A stretch of 64,000 nucleotides of DNA from Microbacterium sp. A20 (lineage in GTDB: Bacteria > Actinomycetota > Actinomycetes > Actinomycetales > Microbacteriaceae). Below the pieces are notes generated by a model. That model ran no database searches and was not told the DNA's origin. It saw only the letters and a list, made by a program, of their open reading frames with translations. The position numbers and the translations under genes are program-made. Positions 30,396-59,311 of this stretch are shown in pieces (the first letter of the stretch is position 1; each line of letters opens with the position of its first letter). The stretch is from positions 1 through 64,000 of the forward strand of contig NZ_SSDF01000043.1 of NCBI RefSeq assembly GCF_004794515.1, written 5' to 3'.

Positions 30396-30601
30396 GTCTG
30401 CAGTGCCTGCTGTCAGCGATCACCGTGTGGGACGGTGAGAACGCACTCCGTGATGTGGGAATCACGGGGAGTTTCAGCAGGACCCGAGGGGTCGGGACGC
30501 AGACGATGCCGTGAACGTGGGGTTCATGGTCTGGGGAAACTGGGGAAACACATGTCGCACTGGGGTTTTTTGCGTACATTCACGGCTCAAGGGGCCTCGG
30601 C
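30396..30601 (+). promoter_or_regulatory. Long structured leader with four G-loop hairpins
   Basis: The region from the predicted transcription start to the sugar-transferase ATG contains four successive hairpins. H1 30420-30438: 6-bp stem, loop TGTGGGA. H2 30446-30469: 9-bp stem, loop GTGGGA. H3 30483-30496: 5-bp stem, loop GGGG. H4 30508-30530: 9-bp stem with two G-T pairs, loop GTGGG. Then come two tandem TGGGGAAAC units (30532-30549) that can act as ribosome site for a leader peptide. Stem sequences are unrelated, loops nearly identical. This stretch (30294-30601) holds no other gene apart from that peptide. The element type is not one I recognise. Confidence 0.65.
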
Positions 30602-30605
30602 ATGA
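30552..30605 (+). CDS. Predicted 17-residue leader peptide coupled to the sugar transferase
   Basis: An ATG at 30552 opens a frame reading MSHWGFLRTFTAQGASA and ends in a TGA at 30603-30605 that overlaps the ATG of the sugar-transferase gene (ATGA). The second TGGGGAAAC unit places GGGGA about 7 nt before this ATG. Such an overlap usually couples translation. No codon run typical of an attenuator is seen (one Trp, one His). Whether it is translated is inference. Confidence 0.45.
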   Translation: MSHWGFLRTFTAQGASA

Positions 30606-32128
30606 CTTCCGTCGAGGATGCTCTGAGCATCACTCGTACGGCCTTCGTGCCGGTCGCGGCTCCGCGAGCCACCAAGTCGGTGACGCGCACGGTGGTCACA
30701 CCGCGCGCTTCGGCGACTCTGGAACGGCGCCGTCAGTGGGAGCGTCGCTATCGGATGCGGTTGCGGATCACGGATGCGGCCGTCATCCTGTTCGCGCTCG
30801 GTCTGACGGCAGCGATCCAGCTGGTCACCGGTGTCTCCGGGGCAGAGGTCCTGCGCGACGGCATTCCGCTCGCCGCGCTGTGGTACCTCATGCTCAGCGC
30901 GATGCACACGCGGGACGCCGCGTTGTTCCGCGCCAGCGCCACCGAGTACCGCGGCGTCGTGCACGCCACCGGACTCGCATTCGGGATCATCGCCATCGTG
31001 GCGGTCCTGCTCGCATGGAAGTCGATGCAACTGACGCTGCTGCTGGGGCTGCCCGTCGGTGTGCTGACGCTTCTGGTGACCAGGTGGCTGTGGCGCCACT
31101 GGCTGCAGACGCAGCGCTCCCAGGGGAGGTTCGCCTCCCGCACCCTCGTCGTCGGCAACAGGGACGACGTGGAGTATGTGGTCCGGACGCTGCACCCGAT
31201 CGGCGCATCCGGGTACCAGGTGGTCGGCGCGACGCTGCTCGACGGCAACGCGCGCGACATCGTGATCGACGACACGCGGTTCCCGGTTCTGGGGAACGTG
31301 AACTCCGTGTCGTCGATCGCCGCCGAAGTCGGCGCAGACACGATCATCGTGGCGAGCCGACCCGAGGGTGAGCCGGAGTTCGTGAAGCAGTTGAGCTGGC
31401 AGCTCGAAGGGACCGCTGCCGAGCTCGTGCTCTCCAGCCGCCTCACCGATGTCGCGGGTCCGCGCATCTCTTTCGCACCGGTCGAAGGCCTGCCGCTGAT
31501 CCAGGTGCAGATTCCGACATACGAAGGTGGCCAGCACCTGCTCAAGCGGGCACTGGACGTCGCCGTCGCCACGCTGGCGCTGATCCCGATCGGTCTGCTC
31601 GCCCCCGTGCTCGCGCTGCTGATCAAGCTGGACTCGCCGGGTCCGGTCTTCTTCTTCCAGGAGCGGGTCGGCCGTGATGGTCGCCGGTTCAAGATGGTCA
31701 AGTTCCGCTCCATGAAGACCGACGCCGAGCAGCAGCTCGCCGCGCTCAAGGCGCAGAACGAGGGCGCCGGCCTCCTCTTCAAGATGAAGGACGACCCGCG
31801 CGTCACCCGCATCGGTCGCGTGCTGCGCAAGCTCTCGCTCGACGAGCTGCCGCAGTTCTGGAACGTGCTCGTGGGCGACATGAGCGTCGTCGGGCCCCGT
31901 CCGCCGCTGCCCAGCGAGGTCACCGCCTACGACGGCACGGTTTTCCGCCGCCTCTACATCAAGCCGGGGATCACCGGTCTGTGGCAGGTCTCGGGCCGCA
32001 GCGACCTCTCGTGGGACGAGAGCGTGCGCCTCGACCTGCGTTACGTGGAGAACTGGTCCGTGATGAATGACCTGCAGATCATGTGGCGAACTGCCAAGGT
32101 CATGGTGCAGCCCAGCGGGGCATACTGA
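30602..32128 (+). CDS. Polyprenyl glycosylphosphotransferase (initiating sugar transferase)
   Basis: A 508-residue WbaP/CpsE-type enzyme that transfers a sugar-1-phosphate to undecaprenyl phosphate, the first step of repeat-unit assembly. After a cytoplasmic tail come four membrane helices (about residues 55-175), a central nucleotide-binding CoA-binding-like domain (RTLVVGNRDDVEYVVRTLHP), a fifth hydrophobic segment (residues about 325-345) and the catalytic domain with FFFQERVGRDGRRFKMVKFR, KLSLDELPQFWNVL, VGPRPPLPSEV and KPGITGLWQVSGRS. AAGGGG lies 9 nt before the ATG. It heads a + strand run with two glycosyltransferases spaced 4 nt and overlapping by 4 nt. Confidence 0.95.
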   Translation: MTSVEDALSITRTAFVPVAAPRATKSVTRTVVTPRASATLERRRQWERRYRMRLRITDAAVILFALGLTAAIQLVTGVSGAEVLRDGIPLAALWYLMLSAMHTRDAALFRASATEYRGVVHATGLAFGIIAIVAVLLAWKSMQLTLLLGLPVGVLTLLVTRWLWRHWLQTQRSQGRFASRTLVVGNRDDVEYVVRTLHPIGASGYQVVGATLLDGNARDIVIDDTRFPVLGNVNSVSSIAAEVGADTIIVASRPEGEPEFVKQLSWQLEGTAAELVLSSRLTDVAGPRISFAPVEGLPLIQVQIPTYEGGQHLLKRALDVAVATLALIPIGLLAPVLALLIKLDSPGPVFFFQERVGRDGRRFKMVKFRSMKTDAEQQLAALKAQNEGAGLLFKMKDDPRVTRIGRVLRKLSLDELPQFWNVLVGDMSVVGPRPPLPSEVTAYDGTVFRRLYIKPGITGLWQVSGRSDLSWDESVRLDLRYVENWSVMNDLQIMWRTAKVMVQPSGAY

Positions 32129-32132
32129 TCGG

Positions 32133-33329
32133 ATGAGCAATTCGAAACGCCTCACCATCGCGATGGTGGGGACCCGAGGAGTGCCTGCGGCGTACGGCGG
32201 CTTCGAGACGGCGGTTGAGGAAGTCGGCCGCCGTCTCGCGGATCGCGGTCACGACGTCGTCGTCTACACGCGCGGATCGGAGCATCGGGAGAAGGAGTAC
32301 CTCGGCATGAAGGTCGTGCACCTTCCCGCCGTCCCGGTGAAACAGATCGAGACGCTCAGTCACACCGGGCTCTCGGCACTTCACCTGTGCTTTCGGCGGC
32401 GCCCGGACGCGACCTTCGTGTTCAACGCCGCCAACTCCCCCTTCCTCCCGCTGCTCCGTCTGCGCCGGGCCCCCGTCGCCCTGCACATGGACGGCCTCGA
32501 ATGGCGCCGTTCGAAGTGGGGCCCGCGCGGCAGGGCCTACTACCGGTGGGCCGAGCAGTTCGGCGTCCGGACCGCCGACGCCCTGATCGCGGACGCACCG
32601 GGAATCGCGGACTACTACCGCCATCAGTTCGACGTCCCGACGGAGATGATCCGCTACGGCGCCCCGATCCTCGAGGAGCTGCCGGAACGCGGCGTCGCTG
32701 AGATGGGGCTCACCTCGGGCGGCTACCACCTCGTCGTGGCCCGGTTCGAGCCCGAGAACCACGTACTCGAGATCGTCGAGGGCTACCGCGACAGCGACGC
32801 GAAGCTCCCGCTCGTCGTCGTCGGGTCGGCGCCGTACAGCGCCGGGTACACCCAGGAGATCCAGCGCGTTGCCGAGGGCGACGAACGGATCAGACTCGTC
32901 GGCGGCGTGTACGACCAGGAGCTGCTCGATGCCCTCTATGCGAACGCGATGACGTACCTGCACGGTCATTCCGTCGGTGGCACGAACCCTTCGCTCCTGC
33001 GCGCCATGGGTGCTGGAACAGCGGTGATCGGCTTCGATGTGCCCTTCAACCGCGAAGTGCTCGACGGCAACGGATGGTTCTTCACCGATGCCGCCGACGT
33101 CGCCGCTCAGGTTCTCGCCGCGGAGGCCGACCCGGACCTGACCGCCTCACGAGGGAAGATCGTGCAGGAGATCGCGCGCACCCGGTTCCGTTGGGACGAT
33201 GTCGCGGATGAGTACGAGGCCCTCGCACACAGGCTCGCGGAGGGATCGAGCATCCATCGATCGGCGCGACGAGCGCGGCGGCGCACCACCGACTGGTCCC
33301 CCGCTCCTGCCGATCCGGCAACGCGATGA
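32133..33329 (+). CDS. DUF1972-type glycosyltransferase (rhamnosyltransferase-like)
   Basis: A 398-residue GT-B enzyme. The N-terminal GTRGVPAAYGGFETAVEEVGRRLADRGHDV is the DUF1972 signature, found in enzymes such as pneumococcal Cps2T/WchF that add rhamnose to the first lipid-linked sugar. The C-terminal donor-binding half includes HGHSVGGTNPSLLRAMGAG. It lies 4 nt after the initiating transferase, consistent with second-sugar addition. Rhamnose as donor is inferred from the family and from the dTDP-rhamnose genes at 54-57 kb. Confidence 0.88.
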   Translation: MSNSKRLTIAMVGTRGVPAAYGGFETAVEEVGRRLADRGHDVVVYTRGSEHREKEYLGMKVVHLPAVPVKQIETLSHTGLSALHLCFRRRPDATFVFNAANSPFLPLLRLRRAPVALHMDGLEWRRSKWGPRGRAYYRWAEQFGVRTADALIADAPGIADYYRHQFDVPTEMIRYGAPILEELPERGVAEMGLTSGGYHLVVARFEPENHVLEIVEGYRDSDAKLPLVVVGSAPYSAGYTQEIQRVAEGDERIRLVGGVYDQELLDALYANAMTYLHGHSVGGTNPSLLRAMGAGTAVIGFDVPFNREVLDGNGWFFTDAADVAAQVLAAEADPDLTASRGKIVQEIARTRFRWDDVADEYEALAHRLAEGSSIHRSARRARRRTTDWSPAPADPATR

Positions 33330-34462
33330 GCGGCGGCGGAAAAGGGCGCACGGTCCTTCTCGTGCACCCCGGCGCGGAGATGTTCGGTTCGGACCGGATG
33401 CTGCTCGAGAGCGCGATCGGCCTGGTCCAAGCGGGCGCCCGGGTCGTGGTCGCACTGCCGAGTTCGGGCCTGCTCGTCCCGGAGCTCCGCGCGGCCGGTG
33501 CCGAGGTGGTCATCATCCCGATGCTCGTCCTGCGAAAGGTCCTGCTGACCCCGCGCGGGCTGCCCCGCCTCTTCCGCGACACCTTCCGCGGCCTCGGTGC
33601 CGCGTGGCGGCTGATCGGGCGGATTCGGCCCGACGCCGTGTACGTCTCGACGATCATCATCCCCCAGTGGCCGCTGATCGCCCGGCTGCGCCGCACCCGC
33701 TCGGTGAGTCACGTACATGAAGCCGAGGCGTCCGGAAACAGGCTCGTGAACGGCATCCTCTACTCACCGCATCTCGCCTCTGAGCGCACGATCGTGAACA
33801 GCCGGTTCAGCCTCGACACGATCCGCGCCGCGTTGCCGATCCTCGCGCGACGTGCGCACGTGGTCTACAACGGCGTCGCCTCTCCTCCGCATCCGATCTC
33901 GCCCCGTCCGCGCATCGAACGCGCGCTTCGCGTGCTCTACATCGGCCGGCTGTCGCCGCGAAAGGGGCCCGACCTCGTCATCGAGGCCGCCTCAGCGCTG
34001 CACACCGCGGGACGGGCCGTCGACGTCACCCTTCTCGGCGCGGTCTTCGAAGGGTACGAGTGGTTCGAGCGTGACCTTCGAGAACAGGCCACAGCGGCGG
34101 GCGTGCCCGTCGACTTCGCCGGGTTCCATTCCGAGATCTGGCCGTTCCTCGCCGAAGCGGATGTCCTCGTCGTCCCCTCACGCGTCGACGAGCCGTTCGG
34201 GAACACGGCCGTCGAGGGCATCCTCGCTCTCCGGCCCGTGATCGCGAGCGACAGCAGCGGACTCCGAGAGGCAGCAGGTGGATACGCCACCGCCCAGCTG
34301 GTCACCGCCGGCGACGCAGAGTCGATCGCCACCGCGCTGACCGACATCCATGCGCGCTGGAACGAGATGGTCTCCACCGTCGCCGACAGCCGCGCCGAGG
34401 CGCTCCGCCGCCACGCCCCCGATGTGTACCGCTCGAGCATCACCGCTCACGTCCTGCGTTGA
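33326..34462 (+). CDS. Family 4 glycosyltransferase
   Basis: A 378-residue GT4 enzyme. The N-terminal LLVHPGAEMFGSDRMLLESAIGL, the donor-site start RVLYIGRLSPRKGPDLVIEA, and the E-x7-E region VDEPFGNTAVEGILALRPVIAS are typical. The ATG overlaps the stop of the preceding transferase (ATGA), so it is co-translated. The donor sugar is not predictable from sequence. Confidence 0.9.
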   Translation: MSGGGKGRTVLLVHPGAEMFGSDRMLLESAIGLVQAGARVVVALPSSGLLVPELRAAGAEVVIIPMLVLRKVLLTPRGLPRLFRDTFRGLGAAWRLIGRIRPDAVYVSTIIIPQWPLIARLRRTRSVSHVHEAEASGNRLVNGILYSPHLASERTIVNSRFSLDTIRAALPILARRAHVVYNGVASPPHPISPRPRIERALRVLYIGRLSPRKGPDLVIEAASALHTAGRAVDVTLLGAVFEGYEWFERDLREQATAAGVPVDFAGFHSEIWPFLAEADVLVVPSRVDEPFGNTAVEGILALRPVIASDSSGLREAAGGYATAQLVTAGDAESIATALTDIHARWNEMVSTVADSRAEALRRHAPDVYRSSITAHVLR

Positions 34463-34489
34463 GCCCGGCCGCCGCACGCGGACGCCCGT

Positions 34490-35824
34490 CTACGCGACGT
34501 CGTCGCTCGGCTGCGGCACCGACTCCTGACTGCCGGCCGTGAGCCGCGTCTTGTGACGCACGATGTAGATCGAGAACGGGATCAGCTGGCACACCAGCAA
34601 CGCGAACGCCACGCCGATCAGGGGTCCGGCGATGCCGAGCACGGGGGTGAGGACGAACGAGAGGCCGATGCCCACGGCCGCCATGCTCAGCGTGGGGATC
34701 ACCTGGAAGCGGATGCCGGGCTTGTCCATGATGAACATCCCCAGCGGGTACACGGCCGCGGTCATCATGATCATGAGGCCGAAGGCGAAGATGGTGCTCG
34801 GACGCACTGTCAGCTCACCCTGTGTGATGAAGCCGAAGAGCCACGGCCCGACCAGCCAGACCACGAACGTCGCGACCGCGATGGCGGTGGCGAACAGCGC
34901 GGAGAGCAGGAACGGACCGCGCTGGAGACCGCCGTCGTGGCGCTTGCGGGCGAAATGCGGCCAGAGTGCCAGACCACCGGCCATCACCAGCCCGTTGAGA
35001 GCGAAGAAGACCTGTCCGGCCACTCCGTACTCGGCGACGTCCGTCGGCCCTCCGAGCTGAGCGATCACGTAGCGCTGAGAACCCACGGCGATCGGATACG
35101 TCACCATCTGCGCCAGCATCGGCCAGCCGACATCCATCACGCGCACGCCGGGGAAGCGCCGCGGACGCAGGACCATTCGGGCAGCCGCCGGGATGAGGGG
35201 TGAGGTCGTGCGTGCCGTGATCAGGATGCCCAGCACCGAGACGAGGAAGGACGCCGCGAAGGATGCGATCGCGACGAACGAGTGCAGGTTCTCTCCGCCC
35301 AGGGTGAGGATCAACCACACGCCCACCATCGTCAGCGGCGAGATCAATCCCTGGAGGAGGATCACGACGTGATTGCGTCGCTGGCCCAGCATGATGCGCG
35401 CCCAGACACCGAGCGGAATCCCGAGGCAGAAGATCGTCACGCAGTAGAACGCCGCGAGTGACGCCCCCGGGCGTCCGCCGGCCTCTCCGAAGACGACCTC
35501 CCACGCGCCGGTGAGCACGAGGACGGTGTTGATCGCCATCGCACTCGCCGCGAAGAGGAGCAGGACCCGGCCGACGGAGGTGAGCTGATACCTCAGCTTC
35601 TCGTCCGTGCGCACATCGTCGCTCGTCGCGACGGCGTTGACCAGGACCGCCCCGCTGCCGAGGTCGGTGAACGTCAGCAGCGAGGGGATCGTGATCAGCA
35701 AGGTGTAGAGGGCGAAGCTGTCGACGCCCGCGCCGCCGATGATCATGCGCGTCGTGAGAACGCCACAGACAAGCGCGATGACCATCGTCAGCGCGCGGGC
35801 GCCGACAGCGAGAAGTGAACCCAT
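34490..35824 (-). CDS. Oligosaccharide flippase (Wzx-like, MOP superfamily)
   Basis: A 444-residue membrane protein with about twelve helices, starting MGSLLAVGARALTMVIALVCGVLTTRMI, the usual N-terminus of Wzx-type lipid-linked oligosaccharide flippases. It would move undecaprenyl-linked repeats across the membrane. ATG 35824 is chosen over the longer open frame at 35896, which would lie inside the upstream gene. It begins 10 nt after the beta-helix gene's stop, so these two are likely co-transcribed. Confidence 0.9.
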   Translation of the reverse strand: MGSLLAVGARALTMVIALVCGVLTTRMIIGGAGVDSFALYTLLITIPSLLTFTDLGSGAVLVNAVATSDDVRTDEKLRYQLTSVGRVLLLFAASAMAINTVLVLTGAWEVVFGEAGGRPGASLAAFYCVTIFCLGIPLGVWARIMLGQRRNHVVILLQGLISPLTMVGVWLILTLGGENLHSFVAIASFAASFLVSVLGILITARTTSPLIPAAARMVLRPRRFPGVRVMDVGWPMLAQMVTYPIAVGSQRYVIAQLGGPTDVAEYGVAGQVFFALNGLVMAGGLALWPHFARKRHDGGLQRGPFLLSALFATAIAVATFVVWLVGPWLFGFITQGELTVRPSTIFAFGLMIMMTAAVYPLGMFIMDKPGIRFQVIPTLSMAAVGIGLSFVLTPVLGIAGPLIGVAFALLVCQLIPFSIYIVRHKTRLTAGSQESVPQPSDDVA

Positions 35825-35834
35825 ACCTACATCG

Positions 35835-38465
35835 TCACCGCTGCTGGGCCCCCAGTGTCGCGCTGTTGGCGGGGAGTCGCGATACCGAGGCCACATCCGC
35901 CGGTACGGGCACCGCCCCCGATGCCTGACCCGGCGTCCGGGGGGTCAGCAGCGCGTACCCGGAACCGACGATGCTCGGGCCTTCGATGAACTGCGACCGA
36001 CGATCGTGCCCGGTCGCTGCGGTGAAGGCCGCGAGCGTATCGGTGACCGCCGGGTCCCTCGACACCGCGCCCCGGGACCATGCCGAGAACCATCGCGGAG
36101 TGCCCGGCGCTGCACGGTGGTAGAGGTTGCCGTCGATACTCGACACCATCTGCGCACCGGTGAACACCAGCGAGAAGTCCTGCACGCACACGAGACAGTT
36201 GCCGGCGCTCTCCGCCATGACATTGTTCGACACCACGGTGTTCCGAACGATCCAGGGCGCCAGCGGCGCGTACCGCGTGCGGGGGTCGTGCCCCGCGGCG
36301 TTCGGGTCGGACGCGCGGCGCGAGTCCTGCCCGATGCTGATGTTGCGGTTCGCGTTCCCGACGAACGTGTTGTTCCAGATCTTCACATTGCCGGAGTTGA
36401 GCACGAAGAGGCCGAAGTCTCCGTTCCGGGCGATGATGTTGTCGGCGACCACCGCACGTTCGGACAGTTCGACCATCAGGCCGTGACCGGTGTTGCCGAT
36501 CACGTCGTTACCGGTGAAGGCGATGTCGAGGACCGACTCGTCGAACCACGGTCCGCGCCCCTTGTTCCCGGTGAACGCGCTGTCCGTCACGGTCACCTTC
36601 TGCGTTCGCGTGACCTTGAATGCACCCGACACCGGAGAGTGGTTGAAGCCCTCCGAGTTGTTGCCGGTGGAGAGCATCTGCGTCACCTTGAGCCCGTCGG
36701 CCTGGGAGGCGCCGCCACCCAGCAGTCCGTTGCCGATCAACGACACCCGGGTCAGGGTGGTGCGCGGAGACCACGAGTAGAAGCCGGTCGTGGAGTTGTC
36801 GCGGATCGTCACATCCGTGAGCGACACGTCGGCAGCCGCCGCGATCACCGTGCCCATCTCGGGAACGGAGGTGGCGTATCGACGGACACCGATCCCCCGG
36901 ATCTCCGACCCGACCGAACGGATCGAGAGGGCCTGCGAGAGTACGCCCGCCTCGACCGTCTTACCCGTGGGGTTCGTGCCGATCACGAGTCGCTTCGCCG
37001 CGTCATCGACGTAGAACGTCCCCGCCTTCACCTGCGCTGCGGTGGCGACCTCGCTCAGCTGCACGCCTGCCACCCAGACCTGGTCCGGATGAGCGGCCAT
37101 GGGACGCGCCGGGTCGATGAAGCGCCAGTCGGCCTGGGTGTAGTCGGGGGCACCCTTGACGTAGGTCGGGCTGGAGTCGAGCTTGGTCGTCCAGCCGTCG
37201 ACCACCCAGGTGCTTCCTGATGCCTTCCACCCGGTGACCGACTTCGCCCCGTCGAGCCAGACCGCCTCGTTCGACGCCGGCTGGATGGTGACCTTCTTCT
37301 GCGGCGGGATCACGACCTGCTCGTGATAGGTGCCCCCACGCAGAACAATGGTGCCGCCGTTCGGGACCAGACGCAGCGCGGCGCCGATCGTCTTGACCGG
37401 TGAGTTCTTGGTGCCGGCAGCGCCGTCCGATCCCGAGGGCGCGGCATAGATCGCCGTCGCCGGAGCCTCGTAGGAGAGGGAGCCGGGGACTCGTGCGCCC
37501 GGTTCGCCACGCACGCCTGCCGGCGTGGCCGGTGCCGGTGCCGGAGCAGGGACCGGAGCGGGAGCCGGAGCGGGAGCCGGAGCGGGGGCCGGAGCGGGGG
37601 CCGGGGCAGGCGTCGGTTTCGGGGTCGGGGTCGGCGCAGGAGCCGGAGCAGCGACGGCGGTGGCGCGGATGTCATCGATACCGACGGGCACCGCCGACTT
37701 CGCCCCGGAAGAGGTATAGAGCGCGAAGGCGTAGCCACCGGGCTTCTGGATGCGGGTGGAGGAGGCATCCGTGTGCGACACCTGCCACGCCGTCGGCTCC
37801 GCGGTACCGGAGACCCACGCCTTCGCCGAGAGGGCGACCGGGTTGGTACCGGTCACGCGAAGCGCCACGTCGAGCGAGGTTCCACTCTTCACGGTCAACG
37901 GCAGGCGGCGCTCAGCGAGGTTCTGCACTCCGGTGAGGTCGGTGAGTCGCACGACGGACACGTAGGCCGAGCCATCAGGATGGACGCGCACCCGCACCGC
38001 GTACGAATCCTTGCCGGAGACGCGGACCGCCTGGGCCAGATAGAGCGGCCCGCCGACGGGGAGCTTCGGGATGGAGAGCGAGAATCGGCTGTCGACGTCG
38101 GCAGCAGAGACGCCGGCGACGCTCGCACGGGCGGTGATCCCCGGCTTGCGGCTGGCGAGCAGCGCCACATCTCCCGTGACGCTGGAGGAGCCTTCGACGA
38201 CGCGCCACGCGCCGACGGCCGACGAACCCCATCCGGCACCGACGGTGCGGTCCATGTTGTCGTCGATGACGGGAGCCGGAGCCGCCGCTGCAGGGCGCGC
38301 CGCTGCCGGGGAGACGTCTGCCGAAGCGGACGCCGGCACCGACGTCAGCGCGGCGGTGACCCCCAGCACGGCGGCGAGAGCACCCGCGACCGCCCGCCGG
38401 GGGCGCTGTCGGAGCCGAGAGGAGGTCCCCCGAGAAGGGGGGAGCACAAGGAACGGAAAGGACAT
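35835..38465 (-). CDS. Secreted right-handed beta-helix protein with N-terminal beta-sandwich module
   Basis: A protein of about 876 residues. The signal peptide (RRAVAGALAAVLGVTAALT...) ends near ASAS. Residues about 60-270 are a beta-sandwich starting DNMDRTVGAGWGSSAVGAW, also found twice in the PKD protein at 41-46 kb. An Ala-Pro linker of about 45 residues follows, then a parallel beta-helix (from YAAPSGSDGAAGTKNSPVKT) with repeated short Asn/Gly turns such as NNTFVG and NVIGNTGHG. Such folds are typical of polysaccharide lyases, epimerases or glycan-binding proteins. ATG 38465 is used, giving a normal signal peptide. Action on the locus polymer is inference. Confidence 0.85.
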   Translation of the reverse strand: MSFPFLVLPPSRGTSSRLRQRPRRAVAGALAAVLGVTAALTSVPASASADVSPAAARPAAAAPAPVIDDNMDRTVGAGWGSSAVGAWRVVEGSSSVTGDVALLASRKPGITARASVAGVSAADVDSRFSLSIPKLPVGGPLYLAQAVRVSGKDSYAVRVRVHPDGSAYVSVVRLTDLTGVQNLAERRLPLTVKSGTSLDVALRVTGTNPVALSAKAWVSGTAEPTAWQVSHTDASSTRIQKPGGYAFALYTSSGAKSAVPVGIDDIRATAVAAPAPAPTPTPKPTPAPAPAPAPAPAPAPAPAPVPAPAPAPATPAGVRGEPGARVPGSLSYEAPATAIYAAPSGSDGAAGTKNSPVKTIGAALRLVPNGGTIVLRGGTYHEQVVIPPQKKVTIQPASNEAVWLDGAKSVTGWKASGSTWVVDGWTTKLDSSPTYVKGAPDYTQADWRFIDPARPMAAHPDQVWVAGVQLSEVATAAQVKAGTFYVDDAAKRLVIGTNPTGKTVEAGVLSQALSIRSVGSEIRGIGVRRYATSVPEMGTVIAAAADVSLTDVTIRDNSTTGFYSWSPRTTLTRVSLIGNGLLGGGASQADGLKVTQMLSTGNNSEGFNHSPVSGAFKVTRTQKVTVTDSAFTGNKGRGPWFDESVLDIAFTGNDVIGNTGHGLMVELSERAVVADNIIARNGDFGLFVLNSGNVKIWNNTFVGNANRNISIGQDSRRASDPNAAGHDPRTRYAPLAPWIVRNTVVSNNVMAESAGNCLVCVQDFSLVFTGAQMVSSIDGNLYHRAAPGTPRWFSAWSRGAVSRDPAVTDTLAAFTAATGHDRRSQFIEGPSIVGSGYALLTPRTPGQASGAVPVPADVASVSRLPANSATLGAQQR
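37536..37650 (-). repeat. Ala-Pro microrepeat
   Basis: An imperfect 6/12-bp repeat of the type GCCGGAGCGGGA, encoding alternating Ala-Pro in the linker between beta-sandwich and beta-helix. Such tracts can change length by slippage in frame. Confidence 0.8.
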
Positions 38466-38650
38466 GATGTCACCGTTTTCTGGGGCAGGTTCTACGATCA
38501 ACCAGCACCTCGCCGCTGTTTACACCCCGGCGGTGAAGTGCGAGTCCCCCTCGCAACTCATGAAGAGTAACCGGCTCGGGAGGCAAAGACAAACGGACCG
38601 CGCCTTCCGACCGATATACACGCCATGATGGCGTGGACCGTGCTCCGCGG

Positions 38651-40003: not shown

Positions 40004-40035
40004 GGTTCCCCATTCCCCCTGAGATTTCGATTCTA
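40004..40035 (-). promoter_or_regulatory. Promoter and short G-rich leader of the Wzz/kinase gene
   Basis: -10 TAGAAT (40035-40030) is followed by a leader of about 20 nt with AGGGGGAA then TGGGGAACC directly before the ATG. It carries the TGGGGA word shared by other leaders in the locus but forms no hairpin that I can see. Confidence 0.5.
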
Positions 40036-40058
40036 GATGAGTCAACGTTTCGCCAGCC

Positions 40059-41519: not shown

Positions 41520-41551
41520 GGAACGCACCTCACATGCGTCGCCTGATGCTG

Positions 41552-46255: not shown

Positions 46256-46275
46256 TAGTGACTCCCCAGCCGCAG
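46256..46275 (-). promoter_or_regulatory. G-loop hairpin before the giant PKD protein gene
   Basis: On the minus strand GGCT-GGGG-AGTC (46271-46260) is a 4-bp stem with a GGGG loop, 4 nt before the ATG, so the ribosome site is in the loop. The start codon itself continues into TGGGGAAC. Confidence 0.45.
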
Positions 46276-46961: not shown

Positions 46962-47051
46962 TGCAGCTCCCCAGAACCCAGATTCCCCATCCCGAAGCCC
47001 CCTCGGCTTCGGTCCCCTCAACCACGCAGAACGCGGCGTCGGCTAATCGTA
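46962..47051 (-). promoter_or_regulatory. Promoter and hairpin leader of the lipoprotein gene
   Basis: -10 TACGAT (minus strand, 47051-47046), then a perfect 8-bp hairpin CCGAAGCC/GGCTTCGG (47012-46992) with loop GAGGG, then TGGGGAAT (46989) and TGGGGAG (46973) spaced exactly 16 nt, the same spacing as in the leader at 58830/58846. Confidence 0.55.
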
Positions 47052-48416: not shown

Positions 48417-49360
48417 TTCCTGCCCTTCTGGTCTGCCCCCTGCGTACGAGCGATCCGCCGCGCCTCGCGAACTCCACGGAAGTAAGCACGGATCGGTGCG
48501 GCCGACTGGATCAGCTGCCGACGTCCTCCGCGGAGGATCACCTCTCGGGCCGTCCGCGGGATCGAGCGACGCCAGCGCCGCACGTCCGCCTCGTCGAGGT
48601 GACGCACGGCGAAGAGCATCCGATTGCGGATGTTGTAGTAGTAATAGGTCTCGGATTTGGCTCGCGACAGCTCCGGCCCGGAGCGCTGCGTCCCGCCCTC
48701 GTCGTGCACGGCGCTCGCCTCCTCGACGAGCGCCAGCGAGCCACCCGCCGACACCACCTTCCTCGAGAAGTCGACGTCCTCCCAGTACAGGAAGTAGTCG
48801 TCATCGAAGCCGCCGGCGAGCTCCCAGACCTCGCGCGTGATCCACAGGCAGGCCCCGCTCAGCCAGGGCTCGAACGGTCGACCATCCCCGACGACGCGCC
48901 GGCGTCGAGCGCGCATGGTGCCGTCGTCGAGCAGCAGGTCGATGCCGTCGAACCAGGTCCGTCCTTCGGAGTCCGAGATGCGCGGGGACGCGAGAGTCGT
49001 GCGTGCGTTCGCCGTGGTGGAGGCGAGCAGCCGCAGCGACTCCTGGTCGATGTGCGCATCCGGATTGATGACGAGGACATCGGTCGCCCCTTCGGCGAGC
49101 GCGCGGGTCACGCCGATGTTGACGCCTCCGCCGAAGCCTGAGTTGGTGTCGGGCGAGATCAGCAGCCAGTCGTTCTCGGCGGCGACCTCCTCGGCGGCAC
49201 GGCGCTCGTCGGCGCTCGACCAGTTGTCGACCACAATGACCGAGACGTCCGGATCGATCGCTCGCGCCTCGCGCGCGACGACCACCAGGTTGCGTCGCAG
49301 CAGCGCCGCCGAGGCATAGTTCACGACGACGACGGCGAAGCGCCCGTGGACGAACGACAC
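48407..49360 (-). CDS. Family 2 glycosyltransferase (rhamnosyltransferase-like)
   Basis: A 317-residue GT-A enzyme starting VSFVHGRFAVVVVNYASAALLRRNL. It shows VIVVDNWSSADE, NSGFGGGVNIGVTRA, VLVINPDAH (DXD-like) and FDDDYFLYWEDVDFSRKV, the order seen in WbbL-like rhamnosyltransferases. The start is GTG 49360, chosen for the near-perfect GGAGG ribosome site 5 nt upstream; the open frame extends to 49396 but those codons lie in the structured leader. Rhamnose donor use is inferred. Confidence 0.88.
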   Translation of the reverse strand: MSFVHGRFAVVVVNYASAALLRRNLVVVAREARAIDPDVSVIVVDNWSSADERRAAEEVAAENDWLLISPDTNSGFGGGVNIGVTRALAEGATDVLVINPDAHIDQESLRLLASTTANARTTLASPRISDSEGRTWFDGIDLLLDDGTMRARRRRVVGDGRPFEPWLSGACLWITREVWELAGGFDDDYFLYWEDVDFSRKVVSAGGSLALVEEASAVHDEGGTQRSGPELSRAKSETYYYYNIRNRMLFAVRHLDEADVRRWRRSIPRTAREVILRGGRRQLIQSAAPIRAYFRGVREARRIARTQGADQKGRKWS

Positions 49361-49458
49361 GTGATCCTCCCCCCGGATCCGCATCACGGATCGCATCGGG
49401 TCGCCGGTCGAATTCCCCAGAGTCGCGACCGGCGTCGACTCCCAGGAGAACGACTATA
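49361..49458 (-). promoter_or_regulatory. Promoter and leader with two alternative stems
   Basis: -10 TATAGT (minus strand, 49458-49453). The leader carries CTGGGAGTC, then a perfect 9-bp stem CGCCGGTCG/CGACCGGCG (49434-49426 with 49410-49402) whose 15-nt loop contains CTCTGGGGAATT. A second 6-bp stem GAGTCG/CGACTC is also possible, using part of that loop. The two stems interleave, so either an alternative fold or a pseudoknot is possible. Confidence 0.55.
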
Positions 49459-49499
49459 CGCGAGAGGGCCACGCGGTGAAGGAAATCCGAGGTTCGCGG

Positions 49500-49573
49500 T
49501 ACGATGAGCCGGCGTCGCAGTCAGGCGCGCGACTGCCATGGGGATGGCACGACTGCCATGGGGGATGGTGCGG
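49500..49573 (+). promoter_or_regulatory. Promoter and tandem GGGG-loop hairpins
   Basis: -10 TACGAT (49500-49505). Then an almost exact 20-bp direct repeat (49530-49547 and 49550-49568). Each copy is a hairpin: TGCCAT-GGGG-ATGGCA (49534-49549) and TGCCAT-GGGGG-ATGGTG (49554-49570). The region just after the -10 box resembles that of the lipoprotein leader at 47046 (TACGATnAGCCG). Confidence 0.6.
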
Positions 49574-51565: not shown

Positions 51566-51610
51566 GCCGGATCCGACGAGCGCTTCCTTCGACGACGAGA
51601 GGCTGTATTG

Positions 51611-52951
51611 ATGTCCACACCGATGAGACGCGCGTTCTTCCGCGCGAAAGCAGCGACCGTGCGCGCGAAAGCGGGTTCGTTCCACCGCGAGCTCCTGGCG
51701 AACGAGCGCCTCTCGCCGGACGAGTTCGCTCAGATGCAGAACGGGCTCGCACGCGACATCGCGGCGTTCGCCATGAAGTCCTCGCCGTTCTACGGCCGGC
51801 ACTACGGCGAGCTCGGCATCCGCCCGAACTCCCTGATCGATCCGGAGGCGTGGGCGGCGCTGCCGATCCTCGATCGCGCCACGGTGAAACAGCACGCGGC
51901 GGAGTTCCGCACCGCCGAGGCGACGGACGCCAACGCTCGTCCGGCGCTGACCGGGGGGAGCACCGGGGAACCGCTGGCCACGTTCCACGACGCCCGGGTG
52001 CCGTCGCTCGCGCTGAGCTGGCGGATGTACTCCTGGTGGGGAGTGGAGCCGTCCGACGACCTCGCCCGTGTGGGTCGCTGGAACTTTGGCCGCCTGGCGA
52101 CCCTCAAGAACGACGTGGCCTGGTGGCCGACCAAGCAGGTCTATCTCGACGCCGGTCTCATCTCGGCGCAGACCATGGAGACGTTCCATCGCCAGCTCAC
52201 GGCGACCCGACCGCGCCTGATCGAGGGCTACGTGGGAGCGATGCTGGAGTTCGCCGACTTCCTGGAACGCCGAAAGCTGACCGTCCCCGCACCGACGGCG
52301 ATCGCGACGACGGCTGCGCCGCTCACGGCATCCGTCCGCGCTCGTCTCGAGTCCGTCTTCGGCGCGCCCGTCTACGACGAGTACCGCGGTTCCGAGTTCG
52401 GGTGGATCGCCGGCGAATGCGGCCACCGCGACGGGCTCCACGTGTTCGCGGATGTCCGACGTGTCGAGGTGGTGGATGAAGACGGCGCTCCCGCGGCCCC
52501 GGGCCAGCTGGGCGACCTCGTCATCACAGATCTCCGCAATCGCGTGTTCCCCATGATCCGGTATCGCACGGGCGACAAGGGCATCCTCCGAGAGGAACCC
52601 TGCCGCTGCGGCCGCGCCCTTCCGCTCATGGAGCAGCCGCAGGGTCGGACGACGGACCTGATCCGTCTGCCCAGCGGGACCGTGCTCGCGCATCGCCTCA
52701 TGGGGATGTTCGCCGCGCACCCGGAAGCAGTCCGGCTCTTCCAGATCCATCAGCTCTCCGACTACTCGATCATCATCCGCGTCGTCGTCGGCGACGGTGC
52801 GCAGGCGCGGGATCAGATCGAGAGCGCGGTCACCTCGCTGCGCGAGCGGATCGCGAACGAGGTGCCGGTGACCGTCGAGTACGTCGACGCGCTGCCCTAC
52901 ACGGGCGGCAAGACGAAGTACGTCATCAGCGACGTGCCGACCACGACGTGA
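51611..52951 (+). CDS. CapK/PaaK-like adenylate-forming enzyme
   Basis: A 446-residue protein of the ANL superfamily, CapK/PaaK branch. The ATP-binding loop TGGSTGEP lies near residue 118. YDEYRGSEFG, DLVITDL and YRTGDKG follow at expected spacing, and the C-terminus has YTGGKTKYVI with the catalytic Lys. CapK-like proteins occur in capsule loci and are thought to activate a carboxylate for attachment to the polymer, though the reaction is unproven. No acyl or peptidyl carrier protein is visible nearby. Confidence 0.85.
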   Translation: MSTPMRRAFFRAKAATVRAKAGSFHRELLANERLSPDEFAQMQNGLARDIAAFAMKSSPFYGRHYGELGIRPNSLIDPEAWAALPILDRATVKQHAAEFRTAEATDANARPALTGGSTGEPLATFHDARVPSLALSWRMYSWWGVEPSDDLARVGRWNFGRLATLKNDVAWWPTKQVYLDAGLISAQTMETFHRQLTATRPRLIEGYVGAMLEFADFLERRKLTVPAPTAIATTAAPLTASVRARLESVFGAPVYDEYRGSEFGWIAGECGHRDGLHVFADVRRVEVVDEDGAPAAPGQLGDLVITDLRNRVFPMIRYRTGDKGILREEPCRCGRALPLMEQPQGRTTDLIRLPSGTVLAHRLMGMFAAHPEAVRLFQIHQLSDYSIIIRVVVGDGAQARDQIESAVTSLRERIANEVPVTVEYVDALPYTGGKTKYVISDVPTTT

Positions 52952-52956
52952 CTCCG

Positions 52957-52994
52957 GCGGCGGTCGCGCCCGGGTCTCGGTGCGTGACCGCCGC
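52957..52994. terminator. Hairpin between convergent genes
   Basis: A 9-bp perfect stem GCGGCGGTC/GACCGCCGC with a 20-nt loop, between the adenylate-forming gene and the convergent glycosyltransferase. No T tract. Confidence 0.5.
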
Positions 52995-52996
52995 TG

Positions 52997-54019
52997 TCAT
53001 GCCCGGGACAGCAGCCCCTGCACGAGCGCCGCGACCATGATCTGCGTCGTGAAGTTGCGCTCCACCTCGATCCGTCCGTTCCGCCCGAGCTCGGCCGCAC
53101 GTTCCGGGTCGTCGAGCAGCCGCAGCACGGCGCCCGCGAGTGCCTCCGCGTCCCCGGGCGGCACGAGGTGTCCGGTCCGCCCCTCGCTCACGTACTGCGC
53201 CATGCCGGGCGTATCGGAGACGACGACCGGACGGGCTGTCGCGAGTGCTTCCAGAGCCACCGTCATGCCCGAGGCGTGCAGGTTCGGTCTGGTCGGGACG
53301 ACGATGACGCTGGCGGTCGCATAGAGATCTCGGAGCTCCGCATGCGGCATGTGCCGGACCACCCGCACCCCCTTGGGCGGCACGAGGTCTGAAGCGGTCT
53401 GCACCACGACCTCCGTGTCCGGTCGCGCAGCCAGCACCCGCGCGAGCGCCGCGTAGAGCGTCACCGGATCGCGGTCACGATCGTTGCCGACGCTGACGAT
53501 CCGCGGCTGCGTCGGAGAAGGGCGTGCGCCGAAGAATTCGCTGTCGATGCCGAACGGGATCGCGAACACCCGCGGACCACGGGTCCCCAGCAGGTCCCGG
53601 AGCGGGTCGACCTGTGCTTCGCTGAGCACCCACGCGGACTCCGCACCGCTCAGCATCGAGAGCAGGCGCGGCGGTGTGGACCCGGCCCGCGCCATGTCTG
53701 TGAGCCAGATCACGCCGGTGGCGAATCGCGCGCGGGGACGCAGGACCTGCAGGCGATAGGCGGTGTTCTCGTCCCAGGACACCGCCAGCCCCTCGACAGG
53801 GCGGGGCCCGATGCCCAGCCGCGCTCGCACACGAGGAACTCGACCGGGCGGCGGGAGATCGATCACCTTCACGGCCGCATGATCACGCAGCGCGTCCAGT
53901 CCGTACGGCCACACGCTCGGCACCTCGCCCCTGGCATGGCTCTGCGCCCAGGCCGGCGCCGACTGTTCGGCGCGATGAGCCCAGGTGAGAGACAGCGAGG
54001 CCCCATCCTCGGATTCCAC
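52997..54019 (-). CDS. Family 4 glycosyltransferase
   Basis: A 340-residue GT-B enzyme. The donor half shows RIVSVGNDRDRDPVTLYAAL, VRHMPHAELRDLYATASVIVVPT and ASGMTVALEALATARPVVVSD (E-x7-E region). The N-terminal half is short and variable. The start is set at GTG 54019: a -10-like CATAGT (minus strand, 54031-54026) lies 6 nt before it, the spacing of other leaderless genes here. A TTG at 54055 would add 12 residues and lacks a ribosome site. Confidence 0.83.
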   Translation of the reverse strand: MESEDGASLSLTWAHRAEQSAPAWAQSHARGEVPSVWPYGLDALRDHAAVKVIDLPPPGRVPRVRARLGIGPRPVEGLAVSWDENTAYRLQVLRPRARFATGVIWLTDMARAGSTPPRLLSMLSGAESAWVLSEAQVDPLRDLLGTRGPRVFAIPFGIDSEFFGARPSPTQPRIVSVGNDRDRDPVTLYAALARVLAARPDTEVVVQTASDLVPPKGVRVVRHMPHAELRDLYATASVIVVPTRPNLHASGMTVALEALATARPVVVSDTPGMAQYVSEGRTGHLVPPGDAEALAGAVLRLLDDPERAAELGRNGRIEVERNFTTQIMVAALVQGLLSRA

Positions 54020-54136
54020 GAGCCAACTATGGACCCCCGGCTCGATTCCTGACAAGGGTCGATTTCCGCAGGGCAGCTGCTCGGCTCAGCCCGCGGCCGT
54101 CACAGCATCCGCCCACCATGCGGCGATGCGACCCGC

Positions 54137-56102
<1,966 letters not shown>

Positions 56103-56103
<1 letters not shown>

Positions 56104-57518
56104 TGACGGAGTTCGGCAAGGCGCTCACGGTCACCGAGACGCCGATCCCCGGCCTGCTCGTCGTGGACCTGCCCGTGCACGGGGATTCTCGCGGATGGTT
56201 CAAGGAGAACTGGCAGCGCGAGAAGATGGTCGCCGCCGGGCTCCCGGACTTCGGTCCGGTGCAGAACAACATCTCCTTCAACGATGCGGTCGGCACCACG
56301 CGCGGCATCCATGCGGAGCCCTGGGACAAGTGGGTCTCGGTCGCGACCGGGAAGATCTTCGGCGCCTGGGTCGATCTTCGCGCGGGCGACACGTTCGGCA
56401 CGGTCTTCACGACGGAGATCGACCCGTCGCGCGCGATCCTGGTGCCCCGCGGCGTCGGCAACTCGTATCAGACCCTCGAGGCGGACACCGCCTACACCTA
56501 CCTCGTCAACGACCACTGGTCGCCCGACGCCGAGTACTCGTTCCTGAACCTCGCGGACGAGACCGCGGCGATCGCGTGGCCGATCCCGCTCGCCGACGTC
56601 GAGGTCTCGGCCAAGGACCTCGCGCACCCGCGCCTCGCCGACGTGACGCCGATCGGACCGAAGAAGATCCTCGTCCTCGGCGGCGCCGGCCAGCTCGGAC
56701 TCGCGCTGCGCGCAGCTCTCGGTGACGCCGAGCACGTGGAGTACACGACGCGGGAGACGCTCGATCTGCGGGCCGACGACCTGGCCACGGCGCGACGCTG
56801 GCGCGACTACCGCGCGATCATCAACGCCGCCGCCTACACCGCGGTCGATCTCGCCGAGACCGACGACGGACGCGGCGACGCCTGGTCGTCGAACGTCACC
56901 GGCGTGACCGCATTGGCGCGCATCGCCACCGAGAACGGCATCACCCTCGTGCACGTCTCCAGCGACTACGTGTTCGACGGCACGAAGTCGAGCGCGTACA
57001 CCGAGACCGACCCGGTGCGACCGCTCGGGGTCTACGGGCAGACGAAGGCGGCCGGCGACGCGGTCGCCGCCACGGTTCCGCGGCACTACATCGTCCGCAC
57101 ATCGTGGGTCATCGGCGAGGGGCGCAACTTCGTGCGCACGATGGCATCGCTCGCCGAGCGGGGCATCTCTCCTCGGGTCGTCGGCGACCAGATCGGGCGC
57201 CTGACCTTCACCGAAGATCTGGCCTCGGCGATCCTGCACCTGCTGTCGACCGCTGCGCCCTCCGGCGTCTACAACGTGACCGGTGCGGGAGAGCCGCGGT
57301 CGTGGGCCGACATCGCGCGCGCCGTGTACCGCCTGACCGGGCACGACCCGTCCGCCGTGACGGACGTGACCACGACGGAGTACTTCGCCGATCAGACGGG
57401 CCCCATCGCCCCGCGCCCGCTCAACAGCGTGCTGGACCTCGACCGCATCCAGGCGACGGGATGGACGCCGCGGGACGCGGACGCCGCCCTCGAGGCGTAC
57501 CTCGCCGCGAGCAGCTAG
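56103..57518 (+). CDS. rmlCD: Fused dTDP-4-dehydrorhamnose 3,5-epimerase / reductase
   Basis: A 471-residue fusion. Residues 1-185 are an RmlC cupin epimerase (DSRGWFKENWQREKM, FNDAVGTTRGIHAEPWDKWVSV, RGVGNSYQTLE). Residues about 190-471 are an RmlD reductase (KKILVLGGAGQLGLALRAAL, SSDYVFDGTKSSAYTETD, YGQTKAAGD). Together they turn dTDP-4-keto-6-deoxyglucose into dTDP-L-rhamnose. ATG 56103 overlaps the rmlB stop by one base (TGATG). The last bases overlap the convergent DPM1-GtrA gene. Confidence 0.95.
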
Positions 57519-58693
57519 AGCTCACCCGGCTTCATCGCCTCGGCATCGATCGCGCGGATGACCCGCAGGGCGGCCGTATCCGTCGGCGGCTCGGCCCCCG
57601 CGGCATCGCCCTTGCGCCGCCGCTGCGGCGCGTAGACGACGAGCGAGTGGAACAGGAACCGGGCGAAGAACGCGACGATCAGCGAGAGCGCCGTCGCGAG
57701 CACGCTCGAGATGTGCCAGGACTCGACCATGAGCGCCATCACCGGGATCCGCAGCGCGGCCTCGACGTTGTTGAACGCGAAGGAGCTGGCGAAGCGGATG
57801 CCGAGGGCGCGGGCATCCGTGCGCATGTCGGCGAACACGAACCGCTCCTGCAGCAGGAAGTTGCCGATTATCGTGACCTCGGCCCCGATGATGGCCGCCC
57901 AGACGTACGGCACACCCGCGGCGGTGAGCGCCCACATGATGCCGAGGTTCGCGGCCGCGCCGATCACGCCGATGAGCGCGAACAGCGACATCTTCCCGAA
58001 GCGCAGGCGGGCGAGGTGCGCGATGAAGGTCGCCCCCTGGCGCAGACTCGCCTTGGACGTGCCGTGCCGGCGCTCGCCGAACTCCATCGGCACCTCGGCG
58101 ATGCGCAGATCATTGCGCGCGAGGATCTCGAGGAGGATCTTGAAGCCCTGCGGCTGGAGCGCCGACAGGTCGAGCTGACGGCGGTCGACGAGGAAGAAGC
58201 CGGTCATCGGGTCGGTGCTGCGCGCGAGGCGGATGGGGAACATCGCCCTGGTCAGCCACGTCGCCACGCGGGAGACACCGAAGCGCACGGCCGTGCCGAG
58301 CCCGCTCGTGTCGCCTCCGCCGATGTAGCGGGACGCGGCGACGAGGTCGGTGTCACCCTGCGCGAACCGCTCCAGCAGGATGGGAAGGAGCTCGGGCGGA
58401 TGCTGCAGATCGCCGTCCATGACGATGCAGACATCCGATGCCGCGGCCTCGAGTCCGACGGCTACGGCCCCGCCGAGTCCGCCTCTGTTGTCGGTGCGGT
58501 GGATGACCCGCACGGGAATCGGGGCGTCGACCGCGACCCGTTCGACCTCGGCGGCGGTGTCGTCGGTGCTGTCGTCGACGAACAGCACCTCGGCGTCCCA
58601 TCCGGCGAGCGCGGCGGCGGTGCGGGCGACGAGTTCCGCGACGTTCTCACGTTCGTTGAACGTCGGCACGATGACCGTGACCGGTGTCCCCAC
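57515..58693 (-). CDS. Polyprenol-phosphate glycosyltransferase fused to GtrA
   Basis: A 392-residue fusion. Residues 1-240 are a GT2 dolichol-phosphate-mannose-synthase-like domain (VIVPTFNERENVAEL, LFVDDSTDDT, VIHRTDNRGGLGGAV, IVMDGDLQHPPE). Residues about 245-370 are a GtrA-type four-helix membrane domain (FALIGVIGAAANLGIMWAL). It would load a sugar on polyprenyl phosphate and help flip it for extracytoplasmic glycosylation. Start GTG 58693 is preferred because AGGGGG lies 6 nt upstream; ATG 58735 lacks a site. It converges on rmlCD with a 4-bp overlap. Confidence 0.88.
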   Translation of the reverse strand: MGTPVTVIVPTFNERENVAELVARTAAALAGWDAEVLFVDDSTDDTAAEVERVAVDAPIPVRVIHRTDNRGGLGGAVAVGLEAAASDVCIVMDGDLQHPPELLPILLERFAQGDTDLVAASRYIGGGDTSGLGTAVRFGVSRVATWLTRAMFPIRLARSTDPMTGFFLVDRRQLDLSALQPQGFKILLEILARNDLRIAEVPMEFGERRHGTSKASLRQGATFIAHLARLRFGKMSLFALIGVIGAAANLGIMWALTAAGVPYVWAAIIGAEVTIIGNFLLQERFVFADMRTDARALGIRFASSFAFNNVEAALRIPVMALMVESWHISSVLATALSLIVAFFARFLFHSLVVYAPQRRRKGDAAGAEPPTDTAALRVIRAIDAEAMKPGEL

Positions 58694-58775
58694 GTCAGCC
58701 CCCTGTTCCGCGCACGCACCGCGTGCGGCCTCCATCGTTCCATGGGTTGCTGTGGGGAACGAAACCCAGATCTGC

Positions 58776-58855
58776 TAGACTGTCGAACTGCGGCTGTGGG
58801 AGTCGCGAAGCGGATGGGGATCCGTTTACTGGGGAATTACTGATCTGGGGAGATC
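58776..58855 (+). promoter_or_regulatory. Promoter and leader with three G-loop hairpins
   Basis: -10 TAGACT (58776-58781). H1 58789-58807: 7-bp stem TGCGGCT/AGTCGCG, loop GTGGG. H2 58808-58827: 8-bp stem AAGCGGAT/ATCCGTTT, loop GGGG. An unpaired TGGGGAATT (58830) follows. H3 58841-58856: TGATCT-GGGG-AGATCA, which takes in the A of the ATG and holds the only ribosome-site-like GGGGAG in its loop and stem. Folding of H3 would hinder initiation. Confidence 0.65.
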
Positions 58856-59311
58856 ATGGGGACGCGTATCGGCTACGCCGTTGGTGCTTTCGACCTGTTT
58901 CACGTCGGGCATCTGAATCTACTTCGTCACGCCAAGCAGCACTGCGACATTCTGATCGCAGGCGTCGTCAGCGACGAGATGCTGCGTCAGGTGAAGGGCA
59001 TCGAGCCCGTCATCCCGACCGCGGAGCGTGCGGAGATCGTGAAGCACATCTCGTTCGTCGACGACGTCTACGTCGAGACGACGCCGTCGAAGATGGACTC
59101 GTGGCGCGACGTGCAGTTCACGCACTTCTTCAAGGGCGATGACTGGCGCGGAACCGACAAGGGGCTGCGCCTGGAGAGCGAGTTCGCCGAGGTCGGGGTC
59201 GAGGTCGTCTACTTCCCGTACACGGCGCACACGTCGAGCTCGTCGCTGCGCCGCGCGCTCGACGCGATCACCGCCGGCGCGAGCGCGCCCGCCCTCGCCG
59301 CAAGTCGCTGA
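58856..59311 (+). CDS. Cytidylyltransferase-like protein (GCT/TagD family)
   Basis: A 151-residue nucleotidyltransferase. It has YAVGAFDLFHVGHLNLLRHA with the HxGH motif, a central KGIEPVIPTAERAEIVKHI, and the C-terminal TSSSSLRRAL matching the RTxGISTT-like site loosely. Relatives make CDP-glycerol or CDP-ribitol (or ADP sugars). Paired with the CDP-alcohol transferase at 47697, a CDP-alditol route is plausible. The exact substrate cannot be told from sequence. Confidence 0.83.
   Translation: MGTRIGYAVGAFDLFHVGHLNLLRHAKQHCDILIAGVVSDEMLRQVKGIEPVIPTAERAEIVKHISFVDDVYVETTPSKMDSWRDVQFTHFFKGDDWRGTDKGLRLESEFAEVGVEVVYFPYTAHTSSSSLRRALDAITAGASAPALAASR

What the first reader, a model, noticed from the sequence alone, without database searches (positions are those of the whole stretch)
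30420..58858. Recurrent hairpins with GGGG / GUGGG loops in the 5' leaders of the polysaccharide locus
At least thirteen small hairpins sit in the leaders of seven transcription units: sugar transferase (30420-30530, four), PKD protein (46260-46271), lipoprotein (46992-47012), GT2 (49402-49434, larger loop), GT2-GT4 fusion (49534-49570, two), rmlA (54150-54189, two) and the cytidylyltransferase-like gene (58789-58856, three). The stems have unrelated sequences but stay complementary (for example AAGCGGAT/ATCCGTTT, TGCCAT/ATGGCA, CCCGA/TCGGG), while the loops are GGGG or GUGGG(A), often closed by U-A. Variable paired stems with a constant loop are what selection on RNA structure leaves. Each lies downstream of a plausible -10 box. 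The pattern recalls CsrA/RsmE-type regulation, in which a protein reads a G-rich loop, but the loop is not the classic one and most actinobacteria lack CsrA. I know of no named element like it. An unknown RNA-binding protein or sRNA target common to the locus is inferred.
Basis: partly seen in the sequence, partly recalled or inferred. Interest (0 to 1): 0.85.

Follow-up and report, generated by a model that had tools for sequence, protein, structure and literature searches.

The report
G-loop RNA hairpins before polysaccharide genes
In the bacterium Microbacterium, genes for surface sugars carry conserved RNA hairpins that all show the same run of G's, and the same hairpins recur in free-standing DNA stretches beside sensor genes, which points to an undiscovered RNA-based switch for polysaccharide production.

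Summary
In 41 relatives' sugar-transferase leaders the hairpins persist while their stems change in compensation (32-row alignment: 93.5% of cells paired, 18 pairs changed on both sides, no shuffle of 500 as high). G-U wobbles outnumber A-C 82 to 19, so the sense RNA is selected. In 1.56 Mb of this genome GGGG/GTGGG hairpins form 7 clusters; 150 matched loop sets average 1.0 and none reaches 7.

New here: four stand-alone intergenic elements with these loops; one lies between a histidine kinase and a response regulator in 10 genomes. The transferase has a short upstream ORF overlapping its start in 42 of 42 leaders.

Most likely: a Csr/Rsm-like switch in which an unidentified factor binds G loops at ribosome sites and decoy RNAs titrate it. 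Classic CsrA is not the general reader: 0 of 201 hairpins have ANGGA and 14 near-complete genomes with hairpins lack csrA. No 6C RNA, NusG paralogue, RRM protein or Rfam family was found. Reader, transcription, decoy role and direction of control are inferred, not shown.

The parts
30384..30389 (+). -10-like TACAGT, conserved position (CTANAGT) in aligned leaders
   Evidence: by eye
30396..30504 (+). outer stem GTCTGC (30396-30401) with GCAGAC (30499-30504), enclosing second stem CCTGCTG (30406-30412) with CAGCAGG (30475-30481)
   Evidence: fold, pair counts 97.8% and 83-90% of cells paired
30420..30438 (+). hairpin 1, loop GTGGG
30446..30469 (+). hairpin 2, loop GTGGGA (GTGGG in many relatives)
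30483..30496 (+). hairpin 3, loop GGGG, core nearly invariant
30508..30530 (+). hairpin 4, loop GTGGG, strongest covariation
30531..30546 (+). two CTGGGGA motifs before the upstream ORF; likely Shine-Dalgarno
   Evidence: role inferred
30552..30605 (+). 17-codon upstream ORF MSHWGFLRTFTAQGASA, stop overlaps the transferase start (ATGA)
   Evidence: ORF and overlap in 42 of 42 leaders
30602..32128 (+). sugar transferase (Bac_transf)
46260..46271 (-). 4-bp GGGG-loop hairpin just before the PKD-protein start
   Evidence: kept in 4 of 4 relatives at 83% identity or more with an intact start
46992..47012 (-). 7-bp hairpin, loop CGAGGGG, before the lipoprotein gene
   Evidence: 7 of 7 pairs in 4 of 4 relatives with changed bases
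49402..49434 (-). 9-bp hairpin with 15-nt loop holding CTGGGGA, GT2 leader
49534..49549 (+). GGGG-loop hairpin, GT2-GT4 leader
   Evidence: 4 of 4 relatives with aligned start
49554..49570 (+). second, GGGGG-loop hairpin, GT2-GT4 leader; own genome only
54150..54189 (+). two hairpins (GTGGG; AGGGGATG loop) before rmlA (start 54236)
   Evidence: (4 of 4 relatives)
58789..58807 (+). hairpin, loop GTGGG, cytidylyltransferase leader
58808..58827 (+). hairpin, loop GGGG
58841..58856 (+). hairpin, loop GGGG = likely Shine-Dalgarno; stem ends at the A of the start codon (58856)
58856..59311 (+). cytidylyltransferase-like gene

Best explanation
The hairpins are binding sites for one trans-acting factor that reads a GGGG or GUGGG loop on a stem of any sequence. 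In mRNA leaders the G motif nearest the start serves as, or abuts, the Shine-Dalgarno, and upstream copies raise local binding. For the sugar transferase the controlled start is that of a short upstream ORF whose stop overlaps the gene's start, so the gene follows by translational coupling. Binding most likely represses translation. Stand-alone multi-hairpin RNAs, two of them beside two-component regulators, act as decoys that take the factor away and release polysaccharide synthesis. It works like Csr/Rsm with a reader other than CsrA. Shown: RNA structure, conservation, clustering, stand-alone elements, upstream ORF. Inferred: the common factor, that it is a protein, transcription of the stand-alone elements, decoy role, sign of control.
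For: Covariation and sense-strand wobble; clusters beyond control loops. Cytidylyltransferase leaders of 25 of 30 homologues read have at least one hairpin of 5 bp or more. Transferase leaders of G079 (L248, 49% identical protein) and G080 (L287, 53%) differ in sequence but again have several such hairpins and an upstream ORF with ATGA overlap. Stand-alone elements: C81, conserved in 10 genomes between kinase and response regulator; C28 array after a LuxR-type regulator, also in G060; L229 and L295; G064 L247. Other targets: surface protein beside DUF4012 and LytR-CpsA-Psr genes (L293) and GT2 plus polysialyltransferase-like operon (L306).
Against: No reader was found. No transcription data. 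The C81 element is confined to 10 of 99 genus genomes, all of them the model's own sources, and the C28 array to 2, while hairpin leaders are wider, so decoys must differ elsewhere or be missing. In five of 30 cytidylyltransferase leaders no hairpin of 5 bp or more was seen. 17 of 18 non-hairpin transferase loci were read (Leucobacter, Cryobacterium, one Microbacterium, the last with a 4-bp GGGG hairpin) and have no cluster. PKD homologue L282 has no such hairpin.
Confidence: 0.5

Rival explanations
1. One reading: a regulatory RNA with C-rich loops (as in 6C RNA) pairs with the G loops and blocks ribosomes; the stand-alone elements are sponges for it.
For: GGGG/GUGGG are complementary to CCCC/CCCAC; C-rich small RNAs are known in actinobacteria (recalled).
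Against: RF01066 not found in the own genome (one of 14 control genomes rang, C. glutamicum). A scan of the 40% sample for C-rich loops in non-coding DNA gave mostly terminator-like stems and no candidate (inconclusive, 60% unseen). Tight 4-nt loops pair poorly in kissing complexes (recalled).
Confidence: 0.15
2. CsrA is the reader, through the GGA present in part of the loops.
For: csrA is in this genome, after flhA, about 1.3 kb from the kinase beside the C81 element; 109 of 201 hairpins have GGA in loop plus closing pair.
Against: 0 of 201 have ANGGA and 92 have no GGA. csrA was found in 23 of 99 genus genomes; of 25 genomes with hairpin-bearing cytidylyltransferase leaders 14, all at least 96% complete, lack it, and three of these (G005, G066, G083) keep the C81 element.
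Confidence: 0.07
3. Transcription-level control: a NusG paralogue of the RfaH/LoaP kind binds the hairpins and allows read-through of long polysaccharide operons.
For: Such factors act on polysaccharide operons, LoaP through an RNA hairpin (recalled).
Against: Only one NusG-domain protein in this genome; stand-alone copies and Shine-Dalgarno-overlapping copies are not expected.
Confidence: 0.05
4. No dedicated reader: the G tracts act in cis, as weak ribosome sites displayed in loops or by joining into a G-quadruplex.
For: Leaders hold four or more G tracts and the last is the likely Shine-Dalgarno.
Against: Does not explain stand-alone elements with the same loops beside regulators; G tracts inside closed loops are poor quadruplex partners (inference).
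Confidence: 0.13

Closest known systems
Csr/Rsm system (CsrA/RsmA with CsrB/RsmZ-type decoy RNAs)
   Same: Repeated hairpins with a G-rich loop in mRNA leaders, one at the Shine-Dalgarno, and multi-hairpin stand-alone elements near two-component genes; polysaccharide targets (PMC7652899, passages; two-component link partly recalled).
   Different: Loop is GGGG/GUGGG, not ANGGA; stems are often longer than the four or fewer pairs typical of CsrA SELEX hairpins; occurs in genomes without csrA.
ANTAR-target RNAs
   Same: Paired stem-loops in actinobacterial leaders, often over the ribosome site (PMC8164766, passages).
   Different: ANTAR loops are hexanucleotides with A1 and G4; here 4-6 nt, with A at the closing position in 42 of 201; copy number one to eight. 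ANTAR proteins were not searched.
6C RNA and similar C-rich small RNAs
   Same: Complementary loops, so a possible partner.
   Different: Not found.
RfaH/LoaP (NusG paralogues)
   Same: Act on leaders of polysaccharide operons (recalled).
   Different: No NusG paralogue found.

Membership tests
Csr/Rsm (CsrA-dependent) | ANGGA in the hairpin loop | tested here: not met
   0 of 201 hairpins; GGA in 109 of 201
Csr/Rsm (CsrA-dependent) | csrA present wherever the sites are | tested here: not met
   absent in 14 of 25 genomes with hairpin leaders
Csr/Rsm (CsrA-dependent) | site overlapping the Shine-Dalgarno | tested here: met
   cytidylyltransferase 58841-58856 and homologues, by sequence
Csr/Rsm (CsrA-dependent) | multi-site decoy RNAs | tested here: inconclusive
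   C81, C28, L229, L295 elements found; transcription unknown
ANTAR-target RNA | two hexaloops with A1 and G4 | tested here: not met
   5' base U 114, C 45, A 42 of 201; loops of 4-6 nt
ANTAR-target RNA | ANTAR protein in the genome | not tested
   no search made
RfaH/LoaP antitermination | a second NusG-domain protein | tested here: not met
   one match in the own genome
6C RNA as partner | RF01066 match | tested here: not met
any Rfam family | match above gathering score over the elements | tested here: not met
   window: tRNAs only; eight loci: tRNAs and one ALIL match elsewhere

The most novel reading that the evidence does not exclude
Microbacterium runs a post-transcriptional network analogous to Csr/Rsm but built on a new RNA-binding protein that recognises GGGG/GUGGG loops, with decoy RNAs under two-component control switching surface polysaccharide and surface protein production, in part through a coupled leader ORF.
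Probability: 0.42. Interest if true: 0.92.

Novelty: new variant of a known kind. Interest (0 to 1): 0.8.

Why it matters
Decoy-RNA switches of this type rest on CsrA, which 76 of the 99 Microbacterium genomes searched lack. A conserved multi-target G-loop element with matching stand-alone elements would be an independent solution to the same problem. It gives a concrete bait of about 110 nt to fish out an unknown RNA-binding factor and a direct test of how these bacteria control their envelope polysaccharide.

Tried and rejected
Rejected or empty: CsrA as general reader, 6C RNA (22), NusG paralogue, RRM protein (none found, 102), Rfam families, ANTAR by the loop rule. Plain sequence motifs are not enriched. 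The single-hairpin model R1 scored 150 of 1415 candidates in the own genome and gave 7 hits: two window hairpins, the C28 array, and four others without a second hairpin nearby. R2 was built (36) but never used. R3, built from the 10 C81 elements, found those 10 strongly and 9 weak hits in 99 genomes; of the weak, L247 and L248 hold hairpin arrays, the other seven not convincing. The C-rich loop scan gave no candidate. Cluster L227 5288-5354 is taken as chance inside a gene (73; reading frame by eye). The LuxR-regulator search (49) showed the C28 array only beside the own and the G060 copy among the 30 loci read.

Dropped or selected rows: A5 used 31 of 41 loci plus the window; ten closely related ones were left out. 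A3 and A4 consist of hairpins already chosen for pairing, so the counts are not used. Locus L060 was not read. One search left out L132 (overlap) and L134 (other genome). Errors mended: rmlA and GT2-GT4 queries were out of frame, redone in 114 and 115.

Full report
What was tested. The finding lists small hairpins with GGGG or GUGGG loops in leaders of a polysaccharide locus. The window lies in a genome of the Microbacterium oxydans group (G000:C39, 3.94 Mb; group judged from 92-97% identical transferases). The named hairpins are present. The four of the transferase leader and the three of the cytidylyltransferase leader are the strongest; those of PKD, lipoprotein and GT2 are weaker in pairing or loop size.

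Chance. Hairpins abound in 68% G+C DNA, so loops were compared with each other. GTGGG is the most over-represented pentaloop of the window. For clusters (two or more stems of at least 5 bp within 100 nt, one strand) the first 0.96 Mb of the genome has 5, against a mean of 0.56 in 300 frequency-matched loop sets, maximum 3. The 1.56 Mb sample has 7 against 1.0, maximum 5 of 150 sets; 6 are outside genes against 0.19, maximum 2. The total number of such hairpins is not raised (109 against 151), and the plain motifs are not enriched. What stands out is clustering outside genes.

Conservation. A protein scan found 59 transferase loci. In 41 of them (40 Microbacterium, one recorded as a Microbacteriaceae bacterium) and the window, the leader has four hairpins in 23, three in 18 and two in 1 of the 42. 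Of the 18 other loci 17 were read and have no cluster. A MAFFT alignment of 32 leaders made without structure, scored with the fold of the window RNA, has 93.5% of cells paired, 18 pairs changed on both sides and a covariation score of 0.199 against 0.116 in shuffles, none of 500 as high; slid controls give 32-44% paired. Relatedness alone can exceed shuffles, and the structure came from one of the rows, so the wobble count matters: G-U 82, A-C 19, as expected for sense RNA and not for a DNA palindrome. Two enclosing stems belong to the structure. The cytidylyltransferase has a match in 47 of 99 genus genomes; 30 loci were read and 25 have at least one hairpin of 5 bp or more, with unrelated stems in distant species.

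Independent leaders. The transferases of G079 (L248, 49% identical) and G080 (L287, 53%) have leaders of different sequence, again with several GGGG-loop hairpins. In 627 kb around the loci of 12 relatives all 22 clusters lie in transferase or cytidylyltransferase leaders. These regions were chosen because they hold those genes, and some are the same records as earlier loci (equal contig lengths), so this is a check on false positives more than fresh evidence. Of the window's other leaders, rmlA is kept in 4 of 4 relatives, the first GT2-GT4 hairpin in 4 of 4 with an aligned start, PKD in 4 of 4 close relatives (two of three distant homologues have a different GGGG hairpin, one has none), the lipoprotein stem in 4 of 4 with changed bases.

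Upstream ORF. In 42 of 42 leaders a short ORF (17 codons in 40, 16 and 19 in the others) follows the CTGGGGA repeats and ends in an ATGA overlap with the transferase start. G080, G079 and the distant Microbacterium L044 show the same overlap with unrelated peptides of 15, 33 and 12 residues. A GGGGA motif is the likely Shine-Dalgarno, so control would pass to the gene by coupling (inference).

Stand-alone elements. A one-hairpin model led to an intergenic array of about 300 nt after a LuxR-type response regulator in C28. It has at least four such hairpins. G060 has it at 81% identity over 291 of 401 bases up to its contig end, with a 2-nt gap, so a reading frame is not what is kept. A second element in C81 lies between a histidine kinase and a response regulator with a Trans_reg_C domain, on the opposite strand to both. 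It is present in 10 of the 30 kinase loci read, those with the closest kinases (72-100% identity); the model made from these 10 found no further strong match in 99 genomes. Its last stem changes in compensation. Two more intergenic examples are L229 1746-1794 and L295 13508-13542, and G064 has another. None is known to be transcribed.

Further targets. The same function-blind scan found pairs before a surface-protein gene with an LPXTG-like end (by eye; no Pfam match) beside DUF4012 and LytR-CpsA-Psr genes (L293), and some 140 nt upstream of a GT2 domain followed by a polysialyltransferase-like gene (L306; true start not known).

Reader. CsrA is encoded here, after flhA, but in only 23 of 99 genus genomes. 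Of the 25 genomes with hairpin-bearing cytidylyltransferase leaders 14, all at least 96% complete, lack it, and three of these keep the C81 element. No hairpin of 201 has ANGGA, the loop bound by RsmE, although 109 have GGA (PMC7652899, passages). A NusG paralogue, RRM protein and 6C RNA were not found; ANTAR loops differ. A C-rich partner RNA was not seen in 40% of the genome and stays possible.

Mechanism. The simplest account is a factor that reads the G loop, sits at the ribosome site of polysaccharide and envelope mRNAs with help from upstream copies, and is titrated by stand-alone RNAs beside two-component genes. That is how Csr/Rsm works, without its protein. Structure and conservation are shown; factor, transcription, decoy role and sign are inferred.

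Literature. Seven searches of the open PMC library, for Microbacterium or actinobacterial small RNAs, CsrA, GGGG loops, sponges and exopolysaccharide, listed no description of such an element. Only listings were seen, plus passages of two papers. Most subscription papers are outside that library.

Noticed in passing
window 12423-12741: tRNA-Glu, tRNA-Asp, tRNA-Phe cluster.
   Followed up: no
L287:17177-17293: Rfam ALIL pseudoknot match (54.7 bits, cut-off 50) about 1.1 kb before the G080 transferase leader.
   Followed up: no
L096 about 1363-1393, minus strand: A 31-nt G+C-rich stem at the end of the C28 array matches about 90% to one place in each of some 30 Microbacterium genomes (query 348-378); perhaps a common terminator.
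   Followed up: no
L304, plus strand near 7107: Strong terminator-like stem with a CCCC-containing loop.
   Followed up: no
L135:7886-10656 and L090:1501-1752 (G000:C81): csrA at the end of the flagellar flhA gene lies about 1.3 kb from the kinase gene beside the C81 element.
   Followed up: partly
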